From positions 1-64,000 of the forward strand of contig JADZEX010000041.1 of assembly GCA_020850355.1 (NCBI GenBank): a DNA stretch of 64,000 nt. Direction: 5' to 3'. This document shows, piece after piece, positions 13,444 through 19,362 of the stretch (within the stretch, counting starts at the first letter, position 1; each line of letters begins with the position of its first letter). Both the position numbers and the translations under genes were made by a program. The notes beneath the pieces are model-generated. The model was not told where the DNA came from, searched no databases, and saw nothing but the letters and a program-made list of their open reading frames with translations. The DNA is from Fimbriimonadaceae bacterium. Lineage in GTDB: Bacteria; Armatimonadota; UBA10988.

Positions 13444-14267
13444 TCCGGAGCACCTTCGTACACCTGCCGCGGATCGGCGAGTCCACCGAGGCCGCGCTCT
13501 GGGCGCAAGGGGTGACCACCTGGCAGGCGCTGCCGGCCGCCACTCTGGCGCCGCGGCAGCGCTGGCTGGCCGACGCGCTGCTGGGCTCGGCCGAAGCTCT
13601 GGCCGACCGCGACTGGTCGCACTTCCGCAAGATCTTGCACGGCCGTCACGCCTGGCGCTGGTTCCACGAACTGCGCGACCGCGCGGTCTACCTCGACATC
13701 GAAACCACCGGCGGGCCGCCGTCGCACCACTGCATCACGGTCGTGGCCTGCTACGACGGCACCGCGCCAACCGTCTTCGTGCGCGACCAGAACCTGCACG
13801 AGCTGCCGGCCTACCTCAGCGAGTACGACCTGCTGGTGACCTACAACGGCAGCACCTTCGACGTGCCGCACCTGCGGGTTCATTACCCGCACCTGCGGCT
13901 GCCGCCGGTGCACCTCGATCTGCGCTGGCCGCTGCACCGGCTGGGGCTGCGCGGCGGCCTGAAGCGGGCTGAGCGGCTGGCCGGCCTGGCGCGCGACGAG
14001 GACCTGCAGGGCGTCGATGGGCTGCTCGCCATCGCGCTCTGGGACCGCCACCGCCGCGGCGACGACCGCGCCTTGCCAACGCTGCTGCGCTATGCCGCCG
14101 AGGATGTCTTGGGGCTGGAACCGCTGGCGGCGTTCGTCTACAATCAGGAAGTCGCCGCGCGACCGGTGCCGGTCGCAGCGCTGCCGGCGCCGCCCCGCCG
14201 GGCCACCGACTGGCCCTACTCCCTGGAGTTGATCTGGGAGCTGCAGGCGGCCCAGGAGAACCAGTGA
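13440..14267 (+). CDS. YprB-like RNase H-fold exonuclease domain protein
   Basis: The 275-residue protein begins with a helix-hairpin-like segment (FVHLPRIGESTEAALWAQG) as in YprB-type proteins. A DEDD exonuclease domain follows: D and E in YLDIETTG, the second Asp in TYNGSTFDVPHL, and a late Asp in YAAEDVLGLE. These are the metal ligands of the RNase H-like superfamily (PF13482). The usual role is 3'-to-5' processing of single-stranded nucleic acid, but the substrate of this group is not known. The GTG start at 13440 overlaps the preceding stop (GTGA), implying translational coupling to the c-di-GMP gene. Confidence 0.85.
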   Translation: MIRSTFVHLPRIGESTEAALWAQGVTTWQALPAATLAPRQRWLADALLGSAEALADRDWSHFRKILHGRHAWRWFHELRDRAVYLDIETTGGPPSHHCITVVACYDGTAPTVFVRDQNLHELPAYLSEYDLLVTYNGSTFDVPHLRVHYPHLRLPPVHLDLRWPLHRLGLRGGLKRAERLAGLARDEDLQGVDGLLAIALWDRHRRGDDRALPTLLRYAAEDVLGLEPLAAFVYNQEVAARPVPVAALPAPPRRATDWPYSLELIWELQAAQENQ

Positions 14268-15379
14268 TGATGCGGACCCGCTCGCGGCTCTGGTGGAGCT
14301 TGGTGCTGCTGTCCGGCGCGGCCTGCGCGCAGCAGCCGGCCGAGCTGCGGCTGACGCTGCCGCCGGCCATCTACACGGTCGTCGGCCAGCCGCTCGGGGT
14401 GTGGTTCGACAATGTCGTGCTAACGCCGACGCCGGAGGCCTGCCGCTTCGAGGTGAGTTGCCCCGTCGGCAGTAGCGACGCGCGGCGCTGGCTGGCCACC
14501 CCAACCGCGGAGCAAGTTGGCGAACACCCCTGGCGGCTCCGTGTTCTCGACGCCGCGGGCGCCGAGGTGGCCAGCGGCCAGTCCCGGCTGTTCGTCGGGC
14601 CGGCCGACCGCGGCGCGGGCCGGGCCCTGAAGCTGCTGGTGATCGGCGACAGCCTGACCAACGCCACCACCTACGTCAACGAGCTGGCCCGCCTGCTGAG
14701 CCTGCCCGGCAACCCGAGTTGGACGATGCTGGGCAGCAACAAGGTGAGCTGGGCGGCGCCGGGAGTGGTTCACGAGGGCTACGGCGGCTGGACCTGGCAG
14801 CGCTTTGCGACGCACTGGGAGCCGGCCCCGGACCCGGCCCAACGCAAGTTCAGCAGCCCCTTCGTGTTCCTCGACGCGGCCGGTCAGCCGAAGCTGGATG
14901 TCGGTCGTTACTTCGCGGAGAAGTGCGGCGGGCAGGTGCCCGATGTGATCACCGTGCTGCTGGGCATCAACGACTGCTTCGGCGCCAATCCCGAGAGCCA
15001 GGAGGCGATGGACCAGAGCATCGACCGGATGTTCAGCCACGCCGACACGTTCGTCGCCGCCTTGCGCGCTGCCGCACCGCAGGCCGTGATCGGCCTTGGG
15101 CTGACGACGCCGCCGAACGCCCGTGAGGCCGGGTTCCAGGCGAACTACCAGGGCCGCTACACGCGCTGGGGCTGGAAGCGGATCCAGCACCGGTTGGTGC
15201 AGCGCCAACTGGCGAAGTACGCCGGGCAGGAGGCGCAGGGCCTCTGGCTGGTGCCGACCGAGCTGAACCTCGATCCGGTCGACGGTTACCCCGACAACAA
15301 CGGCGTGCATCCGAACGCCGTCGGCTACCAGCAGATCGGCAACAGCTTCTACGCCTGGCTGAAGCACACCCTGCGTTAA
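14267..15379 (+). CDS. Secreted SGNH/GDSL hydrolase with N-terminal beta domain
   Basis: The 370-residue protein carries a signal peptide (RTRSRLWWSLVLLSGAACA) with likely cleavage after ACA. An Ig-like beta region covers about residues 25-120. The SGNH domain follows: GDSLTN (nucleophile Ser), a conserved Gly in VVHEGYGGW, GINDC for the block III Asn, and NGVHPN with the catalytic His. The residue normally Asp three before the His reads Asn. The family deacylates polysaccharides or lipids. ATG 14267 overlaps the preceding stop by one base and has AGGAG 8 bases upstream. It ends in a 4-base convergent overlap with the broken lyase gene. Confidence 0.85.
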   Translation: MMRTRSRLWWSLVLLSGAACAQQPAELRLTLPPAIYTVVGQPLGVWFDNVVLTPTPEACRFEVSCPVGSSDARRWLATPTAEQVGEHPWRLRVLDAAGAEVASGQSRLFVGPADRGAGRALKLLVIGDSLTNATTYVNELARLLSLPGNPSWTMLGSNKVSWAAPGVVHEGYGGWTWQRFATHWEPAPDPAQRKFSSPFVFLDAAGQPKLDVGRYFAEKCGGQVPDVITVLLGINDCFGANPESQEAMDQSIDRMFSHADTFVAALRAAAPQAVIGLGLTTPPNAREAGFQANYQGRYTRWGWKRIQHRLVQRQLAKYAGQEAQGLWLVPTELNLDPVDGYPDNNGVHPNAVGYQQIGNSFYAWLKHTLR

Positions 15380-15795
15380 GCAGGCGGCAGGTCCCAGGCG
15401 GCCACGCGGCCCTGTTCGCCGCCCGCCACGACCCGGCCGGCGAGGCGTTCGAGGCACGTCACGCCCTCGCCCAGCTCGCCCCGCCAGAGCTCCTGGCCGG
15501 CTGCGTCGAGCGCTACCACCTGCCCGTCGCTGGTGCCCGCCAGCAGGTGGCCGCGCTCCAGCAGCAGATCGGTCACGGCAGACCCGAGCCGGCGCGCCCA
15601 GCGGGCCTGACCGGCCTGGTTGAGCAGGTAGACGTAGCCCGTCCCCGAGGCCAGCGCGACCTCCGGGCGGCCGTCGCCGTCCAGATCGCCGCAGCGGATC
15701 CGGTGCGCCGGATAGCCGTGGTTGTCGAACCGCCAGCGCACCGCTCCCGTCAAGTCGCCGCACACCAGGTCGCCGGTCGACGAGCCCGCCACCAG
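15376..15795 (-). pseudogene. C-terminal FG-GAP fragment cut off by amber codon
   Basis: This stretch continues, in the same frame, the large secreted lyase gene after its TAG codon at 15796-15798. It encodes about 139 residues with two or more beta-propeller-type repeats: GDLDGDGRPEVALASG, VYLLNQAGQARWARRL, GTSDGQVVALDAAGQELW and GGEQGRVAAWDL. The last repeat before the stop ends DLDGDGRH and the first residues after it are LVAGSSTGDL, so the amber codon falls inside one repeat unit. A GTG at 15790-15792 could start a separate short protein, but it has no function on its own. Confidence 0.75.
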
Positions 15796-18700
15796 CTAGT
15801 GGCGCCCGTCACCGTCCAGGTCGGCAGTGTCGAAGGCGACGTCGCCAATGGAGGTGTAGACGCTCCCCTTGCGCGGCTGCCCGTCGAGCCCCAGCACGTG
15901 CAGCCGGCCGTACTTGTCACCGATCAGGATCTCGGGCCTGCCGTCGCCGTCGAGGTCGCGGGCCACCAGGTCCATCGCCCCGTGGTAGGCCGCCAGCCGG
16001 CGCCAGAGCTTGTTGAGCTGCGGGTCCAGGCCCCAGCTCTCCATGCTGCCGAGGGTGGTCACCAACAGGTTGTCGACGCCGTCGCCGTCGCTGTCAACCG
16101 GCCGGGTCAGGTAGACCGGCCAGGGCCGCTCGCCGTGGTCGGCGCTGAAGTAGATCCCCGTGGTCTGCTGCTTCCGCTGCAGATCGCCACTGGGATGCAG
16201 CAGATACAGCCAGGTGTCGGCGCTGGAGACCAGCACCGCGGGCGGGTCGGTGGCGCTGAAGCGGGCCGTCGCCACATCGCGCACGGCGCCGCCGGTGAGG
16301 TAGCTCCAGCGCACGGCGCCGCCGGCATCCAGGCGGTGCGCCCGCAGCCCGGCCGCGGCCAGCAGAGCTGGCGCACCGTCCAGCCCGCGACTGCGCAGGC
16401 GCCGCACCGGTCCGCCGCCGGGCAGCGCCGTCTGCCAGGCGGGCGCGCGGCCGGGCGGGCGCGCAGCCGCCGCCGCGGCGGGCGGCCGGGTGGCCGCCGT
16501 GGGCAGCTCGATCCGGGTGGGCCAATCGGTCAACGGCACCCGCACGGTGCCGGCCGGGTGGCGACTGGTCGCCCCGCCCGCCGTCCACTCGAACGCCACC
16601 GGGCTGCTGAGCAGGACCTCGCGCGCGGTCAGGTCGACCGTCCAGCCGACCGCCGGGGCGGCCCGCAGCTCACGGTCGCCGAGCCGCAGGCTGGTGCCCT
16701 GCAGCAGCTCGAGGCGCGCCGGACGCACCACCCAACCAGCGGCCTGCAAGTCGAGGTCGCCGACCCGACTTGGCTGACAGCCGAGCAGCGCCGCGTCGGC
16801 GCCCTGTTCGAGGCGGTAGACACCAGGACTGACCGGCCGCAGCCGCGGCGTGGCTGGCGCCTGGGCGTCACCGACCTGCAGCAGCGAGGCGAAAACCCGC
16901 CGCTCGCCCGGCTGCAGCCGGGCCGCCAGCCGCTGGTGGAGCACGCTGACCGGCACGCTGATGCCCTGCCGGACATGGTTGGTGACGAAGCTCGCCACGG
17001 GCACCGCCGGGTCGATGCTGAAGCGCGCCCGCTGGTGGGCGTCGGCCTCGGGATTCGCCGGCGGCCGCACCTCCGTCGCCGGCAGCACCACCGGCGCGGC
17101 GCCCTCGCGGCGGAACTCGAAGCGGTCGATCCGCACCGCCGGGCGCTCCCGCAGCGTCACCTGCACGCGGTGCGGCCCGGCGCCCTGCAGCCGTACCCGA
17201 GCCGTCGGCCGCGAACCATCCCAACTGCCGCGCGCCGCCCCGTACTCGCCCTGCGGCACGTGGGAGTCGGTGGGCGGGCCATCGTCGAGCTGCACCCAGA
17301 GCGAGTCACTGCTGCCGTCAACGGCTTGCGAGACCACTGCCAGCGTGTAGTCGCCAGGCGGCAGGGCGACGTCGAAGACCACCTTGGAGTTGGACTCGCC
17401 CAACAGCAGCACCCGCTTGCCCGGCGCGGCGGGGTCGTCGATCAGCGTCAGGCCGCCCGGCCGGGCTCGGTTGCCGAGGCCAGCGGTGAAGCGGCCGTCC
17501 GCCGCGACCTGCTGGTCGCCCCGGTCGATGGTCTTCCAGGTCAGTTCCAAGTCGTAGTTGCCGGCCTGCCGCGCGGTGACGGCGTCCTCGACCAAGAACC
17601 AGTCACCACGCTGCCAGAGGATCCGGCGCTCCCAGTCGACGCCGTTGTAGCCGCGCACGACGCTGGCGGTGTAGGCGTGGCCGGCGGTCTGGGTCGCCAC
17701 GCGCAGCGCCGCCAGGCTGGGCACCAGCTCGGCGCAGCGCCCCTCGCGCAGCACGCTCAGCATGGCATGCTCGGTAGTGTTGCGGGTCAGGTAGTCGTGG
17801 TCCAGCAGCCACCGCTCGCCGCCCTGCACGAACGTGATGATGGCGTTGGTGTCGTAATGCAGGTGCTTCCCGCGGCCCAGGCCGTCGAGCTGCAGGTACT
17901 GCGCCCCCGGCTCCCAACTCTCGCGGAAGGTGACCTTGTCGAAGGCCTCGGCGACGGTCACCTCAGCGGGCACCAACCGCTCGCTGTAGACCGGGCGTTG
18001 CTGGGTGTCGGTGTACACCAACGGGTCGAGCGGCGCCGTCCAGAGGCCGGTCAGGCGGTCACCGAGGGCGGGCACCACGTCCTGCCAGAACGGGTTCCGC
18101 CAGCTCGGCGCGACGCGCTGCAGCAGTCCCAGGTAGAGCGGATCACGGGTCGCCCAGAAGGCGGTCGGCAAGACCGCGGTGGCCAGATTCGGCGCCACCG
18201 AGTAGCCGCTGTCGCCAAATCCTGAGGGCCACTGCCGGTCGTCGCCGCACTGCACCGCGTAATCGGCATACCGGCGCAGGTGGCCACTCTCCAAGAACCG
18301 CAGCTCCCCCTCGGCCAGCGCGAACTCGATCACGTGGCCGATGGTGTGGACGAAGTAGCCGTCGGCGTCCTCCATCGGCTTCCAGGCCCGCGCCTGCGCC
18401 GTGAAACCCAGCCGCGCCTTGCGGAGCCACTCCTGAGCCTCGGGCAGGTCGCTGTAACGGCTGAAGTAGCGACCGCCGTAGTAGATGCCGAGCAGCGGGA
18501 AGGTGGTGTGGTTCCAGGTGATCCCGAACTGCTCGTCGATCTCCTGGTACTGATAGCTGTTGCGCGGTAGGTTGCGGCACCACTGCAGCATCGTCTGAAC
18601 GTACCGCGGCCGCTGTGCGAGGGGGATCAGCGGGCAGTCGTCGAAAGCGTCCCAGGCGGCCATGATGGCCCCGCTGGTAGTCTCCTCGGGCCATGGGATG

Positions 18701-19362
18701 TGGCGCTGCGGGTCCTTGGCGTAGACCGCGGCGATGGTTTCCAGCGCAGCCAGGGCGACCGTCGCGTAGGCCTCGTCACCAGTCTTCAGGTAGCTCTCGG
18801 CGTGCTCGCGAAAGGCGGTCAGGCTGGGCGCCGGCGGGCTGCCCAGGAGCTTCGCACGGGCCGCCTCATTGAGCCGGCGGCCGGGCTCGACAAGCTGCTG
18901 GTAGGGCAGCCGACAGGCCGGGCCGGTGCCCTGCAAGAGGCTGCTGAAGCGCTGGCACGCCGCGGGCAGGTCAGCCGGTCGGCTGGCGCCGAGGACGATC
19001 ACATCGACCCCGCCGCCCCACGGGTAGGGGTCCCGCACAGCGTGGAGCGTGTAGCCACCCGGTCCGGGATGCTGGGCGTCCTCGAAGGTGTAGTGGTTCC
19101 AGTACAGCCGCGTCAGCAACTCGTTGTCGAGCATGCTCCCGAGGGCGATCACGGTCGCCTGCCCGAGCGGCGCGGCGGCCAGCGTGGCGACCACCGCCGG
19201 TCGGACGCCGAGACGGGGCTGCAAGGCCGCGGCCAACTGCTGCGCGGCCGTGCCCGCCGCCGGCCCCGCCAGGATCACCGGCGGGCGGTCGTTGACCCAC
19301 AGGGCGGTGCTCTCGAGCGGGGGCGGCGGACCAGCCAGCAGCAGGGCGACCAGCAGCAGCAT
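15796..19362 (-). CDS. Secreted heparinase II/III-like lyase with FG-GAP repeats (truncated)
   Basis: The 1188-residue product starts with a signal peptide (MLLLVALLLAG). After a beta-rich region, an alpha-toroid domain (about residues 175-450) and an anti-parallel beta-sheet domain follow. Typical motifs are FGITWNHTTFPLLG, DGYFVHTIGHVIEF, LGRGKHLHYDTNAIITF and QGGERWLLDHDYL; the Tyr and His residues there are candidates for lyase catalysis. From about residue 1020 come FG-GAP/propeller repeats with Ca-binding-like DLDGDGRPEI. The frame stops at TAG 15796-15798 within a repeat and then continues. The likely role is beta-elimination of a uronate-containing polysaccharide outside the cell. The ATG has GGAGAG upstream and lies 24 bases after the GT39 gene. 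Confidence 0.78.
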   Translation of the reverse strand: MLLLVALLLAGPPPPLESTALWVNDRPPVILAGPAAGTAAQQLAAALQPRLGVRPAVVATLAAAPLGQATVIALGSMLDNELLTRLYWNHYTFEDAQHPGPGGYTLHAVRDPYPWGGGVDVIVLGASRPADLPAACQRFSSLLQGTGPACRLPYQQLVEPGRRLNEAARAKLLGSPPAPSLTAFREHAESYLKTGDEAYATVALAALETIAAVYAKDPQRHIPWPEETTSGAIMAAWDAFDDCPLIPLAQRPRYVQTMLQWCRNLPRNSYQYQEIDEQFGITWNHTTFPLLGIYYGGRYFSRYSDLPEAQEWLRKARLGFTAQARAWKPMEDADGYFVHTIGHVIEFALAEGELRFLESGHLRRYADYAVQCGDDRQWPSGFGDSGYSVAPNLATAVLPTAFWATRDPLYLGLLQRVAPSWRNPFWQDVVPALGDRLTGLWTAPLDPLVYTDTQQRPVYSERLVPAEVTVAEAFDKVTFRESWEPGAQYLQLDGLGRGKHLHYDTNAIITFVQGGERWLLDHDYLTRNTTEHAMLSVLREGRCAELVPSLAALRVATQTAGHAYTASVVRGYNGVDWERRILWQRGDWFLVEDAVTARQAGNYDLELTWKTIDRGDQQVAADGRFTAGLGNRARPGGLTLIDDPAAPGKRVLLLGESNSKVVFDVALPPGDYTLAVVSQAVDGSSDSLWVQLDDGPPTDSHVPQGEYGAARGSWDGSRPTARVRLQGAGPHRVQVTLRERPAVRIDRFEFRREGAAPVVLPATEVRPPANPEADAHQRARFSIDPAVPVASFVTNHVRQGISVPVSVLHQRLAARLQPGERRVFASLLQVGDAQAPATPRLRPVSPGVYRLEQGADAALLGCQPSRVGDLDLQAAGWVVRPARLELLQGTSLRLGDRELRAAPAVGWTVDLTAREVLLSSPVAFEWTAGGATSRHPAGTVRVPLTDWPTRIELPTAATRPPAAAAAARPPGRAPAWQTALPGGGPVRRLRSRGLDGAPALLAAAGLRAHRLDAGGAVRWSYLTGGAVRDVATARFSATDPPAVLVSSADTWLYLLHPSGDLQRKQQTTGIYFSADHGERPWPVYLTRPVDSDGDGVDNLLVTTLGSMESWGLDPQLNKLWRRLAAYHGAMDLVARDLDGDGRPEILIGDKYGRLHVLGLDGQPRKGSVYTSIGDVAFDTADLDGDGRH

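What the first reader, a model, noticed from the sequence alone, without database searches (positions are those of the whole stretch)
15790..15800. In-frame amber codon inside a large secreted lyase
The minus-strand gene 15796-19362 reaches TAG at 15796-15798 within an FG-GAP repeat (DLDGDGRH before, LVAGSS after). The same frame runs on for 139 codons of the same repeat type. Nothing shifts frame. It is either a recent nonsense mutation, an assembly error, or programmed readthrough giving short and long forms of an extracellular enzyme.
Basis: partly seen in the sequence, partly recalled or inferred. Interest (0 to 1): 0.6.

Follow-up and report, generated by a model that had tools for sequence, protein, structure and literature searches.

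The report
Ordinary nonsense codon in a gene
A large secreted protein gene in an uncultured Armatimonadota genome carries one in-frame TAG where its relatives mostly have glutamate, which looks like an ordinary nonsense mutation or an assembly error and not like a special decoding signal.

Summary
The minus-strand frame 19362→15376 is open except for one TAG (15798-15796), and 139 in-frame codons follow to TAA. The downstream part belongs to the same protein. In 33 relatives covering the TAG column the residue is E in 26, S in 5, N and V once each, and never a stop. Relatives whose contigs reach far enough continue for about 130-160 residues. Of 25 downstream columns invariant in five relatives, the window keeps 24. 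The modelled C-terminus is an eight-bladed propeller, and the TAG removes about 3.5 blades.

Readthrough or recoding is not supported. No homologue conserves the stop. TAG ends about 28% of genes here. There is no CUA-anticodon tRNA, no PylS and no unusual RNA fold. RF1 was not found in this assembly, but its operon neighbour DUF1385 is missing too and both are present in relatives, so a gap is likelier than loss.

In 1.73 Mb of this genome I found three more interrupted genes, one of them the only secD. All three ambers sit in Glu columns, and all four lesions fit G:C→T:A changes: a mild hint of consensus error or biased mutation. Reads would settle it. Interest is low.

The parts
15376..19362 (-). 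Full-length frame of the gene (1328 codons plus TAA), interrupted by one TAG; homologous to uninterrupted ORFs of about 1360-1650 codons in other MAGs
15796..15798 (-). In-frame TAG (residue 1189); the homologous column is E in 26 of 33 relatives, S in 5, N in 1, V in 1, stop in 0
15796..19362 (-). Product predicted by the standard code: 1188 residues, signal-peptide-like N-terminus (MLLLVALLLAGPPPP), unassigned N-terminal region and the first part of the propeller
   Evidence: signal peptide read by eye
15376..15795 (-). Continuation of the same frame: 139 codons of propeller plus TAA; hits PF25292 and PQQ_2; 24 of 25 columns invariant in relatives are kept
15376..16437 (-). C-terminal beta-propeller (about residues 976-1328), modelled as an eight-bladed propeller (pLDDT 88, pTM 0.87); the TAG falls in a strand, 19 strands precede that strand and 14 are lost counting it
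15790..15792 (-). GTG two codons after the TAG: the only possible restart near the stop; no clear Shine-Dalgarno seen and no signal peptide would follow
   Evidence: inference
14264..15379 (+). Convergent GDSL-lipase-like gene whose end overlaps the end of the full-length frame by 4 bases

Best explanation
The TAG is a recent single-base nonsense substitution in a gene that was intact until recently. The ancestral codon was most likely GAG (Glu). Translation would stop at residue 1188 and give a secreted protein lacking about 3.5 of 8 propeller blades, probably misfolded or degraded. Shown: the stop, the homologous continuation, the Glu column, the absence of any other damage. Inferred: the ancestral codon, recency, loss of function, and that the base is real and not a consensus error.
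For: Relatives in several phyla have an uninterrupted ORF with E (26/33), S, N or V at the column and 128-161 residues after it where contigs reach. The window's downstream part is undamaged: no shift, no second stop, 24/25 relatives-invariant columns kept against 149/178 upstream, and similar identity on both sides. TAG is a normal terminator: 33 of 111 genes in 184 kb, 229 of 835 in 1.33 Mb, 309 of 1090 in 1.73 Mb. Loss of one copy should be tolerable: at least two paralogues (26-30% identity) exist in the same genome. Other MAG copies of this family are also broken, by apparent frame changes.
Against: The only secD found in the same assembly carries the same kind of lesion, which is unexpected for true mutations and favours a shared technical cause. 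All three ambers lie at Glu columns, p about 0.003-0.018 under simple mutation models; this is three events and a post-hoc test.
Confidence: 0.55

Rival explanations
1. Consensus or assembly error: the organism has a sense codon there, and a G-to-T error entered the assembled sequence, for example from low local coverage, strain mixture or oxidised guanine in the library.
For: The single secD is interrupted by an amber in the same assembly. All four interruptions found fit G:C→T:A, a class of error attributed mostly to guanine oxidation during acoustic shearing (PMC5521083). The flanking protein is fully preserved.
Against: Such errors are normally minority variants and the contig is 200 kb long. 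The interruption rate (4 in 1090 genes) is not different from the same-family genome G001 (1 in 454; Fisher p=1.0). SecDF loss is viable in some bacteria (PMC4118872, abstract shown).
Confidence: 0.37
2. Programmed or genome-wide leaky UAG readthrough (possibly inserting Glu) gives a short and a long form; the apparent lack of RF1 would favour it.
For: RF1 (TIGR00019) is below cut-off in this assembly while all family and order relatives have it. Three ambers sit at Glu columns and one is in secD.
Against: TAG terminates about 28% of genes and only 3 sense-like TAGs were found in 1.73 Mb. No CUA tRNA among 44 tRNAs and no PylS. DUF1385, adjacent to prfA in the relatives inspected, is missing as well, so both probably lie in one gap of a 95%-complete assembly. 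No conserved stop in relatives and no unusual fold (z -1.04). Known bacterial stop reassignments listed in PMC8629427 are all of UGA.
Confidence: 0.05
3. The gene has been split into two cistrons, with translation restarting at GTG 15792 just after the TAG.
For: A GTG lies two codons after the stop and the downstream frame is well preserved.
Against: The cut falls inside a beta strand of the propeller. The second piece would have no signal peptide while the first is exported. No clear Shine-Dalgarno was seen, and no relative is split at this place.
Confidence: 0.03

Closest known systems
Single-base nonsense pseudogenes and MAG consensus errors in bacterial genomes
   Same: One stop in an otherwise intact, conserved frame; homologues uninterrupted; no supporting decoding machinery
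   Different: Nothing found that differs, apart from the mild G:C→T:A pattern across the four interrupted genes
Large secreted proteins of Armatimonadota, Planctomycetota, Verrucomicrobiota and related MAGs with a C-terminal FG-GAP / lambda-carrageenase-type (PF25292) propeller
   Same: Full-length homology (up to 53% identity in the best segment) and the same C-terminal end
   Different: The window copy alone has a stop in the conserved Glu column
Programmed stop-codon readthrough and pyrrolysine or suppressor-tRNA decoding of UAG
   Same: In-frame UAG followed by conserved coding sequence
   Different: No conserved stop, suppressor tRNA, PylS or structured context

Membership tests
Nonsense-mutated gene (recent) | Homologues read through the position with a sense codon | tested here: met
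   33 of 33 covering loci have a residue there
Nonsense-mutated gene (recent) | Downstream part still recognisable and aligned in the same frame | tested here: met
   24/25 invariant columns kept, similar identity on both sides
Nonsense-mutated gene (recent) | The stop is present in the real genome (reads) | not testable with these tools
   No reads and no second assembly of the species available
Programmed readthrough | Stop conserved in relatives | tested here: not met
   0 of 33
Programmed readthrough | Stimulatory context or RNA structure | tested here: not met
   Fold z-score -1.04; the following base C is also the commonest after terminal TAGs, 101 of 229
UAG recoding (suppressor tRNA or pyrrolysine) | Cognate CUA tRNA or PylS | tested here: not met
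   44 tRNAs, none CUA; no PylS; assembly 95% complete
UAG recoding (suppressor tRNA or pyrrolysine) | TAG depleted as a terminator and frequent inside genes | tested here: not met
   309 of 1090 genes end in TAG; 3 convincing in-frame TAGs in 1.73 Mb
UAG recoding (suppressor tRNA or pyrrolysine) | RF1 absent or altered | tested here: inconclusive
   prfA not found, but the neighbouring DUF1385 gene is missing too
   No Pfam, NCBIfam or PDB profile match over the N-terminal ~950 residues
Lambda-carrageenase-type beta-propeller (PF25292) | Match above the curated cut-off | tested here: met
   63.6 bits against a cut-off of 26.8; fold matches eight-bladed propellers

The most novel reading that the evidence does not exclude
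This Armatimonadota lineage really lacks RF1 and tolerates inefficient UAG termination, so that ambers at former Glu codons (this gene, an FGE-like gene, secD) are suppressed well enough to persist.
Probability: 0.03. Interest if true: 0.8.

Novelty: already known. Interest (0 to 1): 0.12.

Why it matters
By itself it matters little: it is one broken or mis-assembled copy of a multi-copy secreted protein family. It is a useful caution that an in-frame stop followed by conserved sequence in a MAG is not evidence for readthrough. If the RF1 absence were real it would be important, but the missing neighbouring gene points to an assembly gap.

Tried and rejected
(1) Genome-wide amber reassignment: rejected on terminator usage, tRNA set, PylS search and the rarity of in-frame TAGs. 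(2) Real loss of RF1: the first RF1 search looked like a loss, but the only good hit is RF2 (SPF motif) and DUF1385, beside prfA in G001, G003 and G004, is also missing from this assembly while found in all six relatives searched; prmC is present but not next to a prfA. (3) Stimulatory RNA structure: z -1.04. (4) Restart at GTG 15792: would split a propeller and leave an unexported fragment. (5) Finding the same species elsewhere: the first genome-contig scan returned nothing and the second returned only other lineages, so no allele-level comparison was possible. (7) Several codon-score candidates were dismissed by reading them as neighbouring genes in the same frame (for example NuoD/NuoE, alaS and the next gene, a PIN-domain gene).

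Full report
What is there. The minus-strand ORF 15796-19362 has 1188 codons and ends in TAG at 15798-15796; the same frame continues 139 codons to a TAA at 15378-15376. Because the genome is 71% GC, a random 139-codon open stretch is not rare (about 0.115), so the open frame alone proves nothing. The downstream piece alone hits PF25292, the lambda-carrageenase propeller family, at 2e-14, and the full frame ends 4 bases inside the end of the convergent GDSL-like gene.

Where it comes from. The window is the first 64 kb of a 199,940-base contig (C42) in a 6.67-Mb, 117-contig assembly that is 95.3% complete.

Relatives. A search of 60 related genomes found full-length, uninterrupted homologues at 35-44% identity. 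A second scan of GTDB species genomes gave 41 loci from Armatimonadota, Planctomycetota, Verrucomicrobiota, Lentisphaerae, Kiritimatiellota and others, the best at 50-53% identity. In the 33 loci that cover the TAG column the residue is E (26), S (5), N (1) or V (1); none has a stop, and where the contig reaches far enough 128-161 residues follow. One of these, L273, aligns poorly there because its own frame is broken. The window protein keeps 24 of 25 downstream columns that are invariant in five relatives, against 149 of 178 upstream, and identity is similar on both sides. There is no sign of decay after the stop.

The domain. An AlphaFold2 model of the last 379 residues (pLDDT 88, pTM 0.87) fits designed eight-bladed propellers best by TM-score (up to 0.87 by target). 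The TAG lies in a strand; 19 strands come before that strand and 14 are lost counting it, so a product ending there would lack about 3.5 blades.

Is UAG special in this genome? No. TAG ends 229 of 835 genes in 1.33 Mb and 309 of 1090 in 1.73 Mb (own codon-score gene caller), and neighbouring gene pairs such as alaS and the next gene show it terminating normally. ARAGORN finds no CUA anticodon on the 44 tRNAs located with Rfam, and PylS is absent. RF1 did not reach its cut-off in this assembly; the hit found carries the RF2 motif SPF. RF1 is over the cut-off in 55 of 61 genomes, including the family and order relatives. The DUF1385 gene next to prfA in G001, G003 and G004 (named from its sequence by eye) is also missing here, although it is found in all six relatives searched. 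One missing segment explains both; real loss is possible but less likely.

Other interrupted genes. Codon-score screens and tblastn in 1.73 Mb found four convincing interruptions: this gene; an FGE-like gene at C42:84955-85437 whose TAG replaces the near-invariant Glu of the motif RLPxEAEWE; secD at C31:95391-96626, the only copy found, with Glu in the column in two of the close relatives; and a cellulase-like gene with TAA at C42:170729. The ancestral Tyr of the last is my inference from the motif; the two homologues aligned do not show Tyr. A possible fifth (C31:86836, before a receiver domain) is uncertain. The control genome G001 gave one in 0.72 Mb; the rates do not differ (Fisher p=1.0). 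Three of three ambers at Glu columns has p about 0.003-0.018 under simple models, a post-hoc test on few events. It suggests G:C→T:A changes, which are the class produced by guanine oxidation during library shearing (PMC5521083) but also a known mutation class (own knowledge).

Conclusion. The finding is a real feature of the assembled sequence and an ordinary one: a nonsense codon at a conserved Glu column of a multi-copy secreted protein. I put 0.55 on a true recent mutation, 0.37 on a consensus error and 0.08 on readthrough or a split gene. PMC8629427 warns of the same trap: in-frame stops in pseudogenes can mimic recoding, and the bacterial stop reassignments it lists are all of UGA.

Noticed in passing
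Whole genome G000; G001 locus L107:8950-11078: prfA (RF1) and its neighbour DUF1385 are both missing from this 95%-complete assembly although the relatives searched have them; prmC is present near a contig end (C85:33860-34606).
   Followed up: partly
G000 contig C31:95391-96626 (L174 and locus L215): The only secD found in the assembly is interrupted by an in-frame TAG; the frame continues for 414 codons and relatives are uninterrupted.
   Followed up: partly
G000 contig C42:84955-85437 (in L082): An FGE/sulfatase-modifying-factor-like gene has a TAG in place of the near-invariant Glu of RLPxEAEWE and continues for 141 codons.
   Followed up: partly
G000 contig C42:169760-170731 (in L086): A cellulase-like gene is interrupted by TAA before IVARWGWDDNLFCWELWNE and continues for 442 codons.
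   Followed up: partly
G000 contig C31:86836-87624: A TAG directly precedes a receiver domain that has no usual start codon for 33 codons; a fifth interrupted gene or an unusual start.
   Followed up: no
L269, L273, L283, L285, L292: Other MAG copies of the same secreted protein family are broken by apparent frame changes, so damaged copies are common in this family or in these assemblies.
   Followed up: partly
L255-L258 against the window gene: The closest full-length homologues (49-51% identity) are in Verrucomicrobia, Lentisphaerae and unnamed MAGs and not in most Armatimonadota relatives (about 30-43%), which may reflect horizontal transfer of this gene.
   Followed up: no
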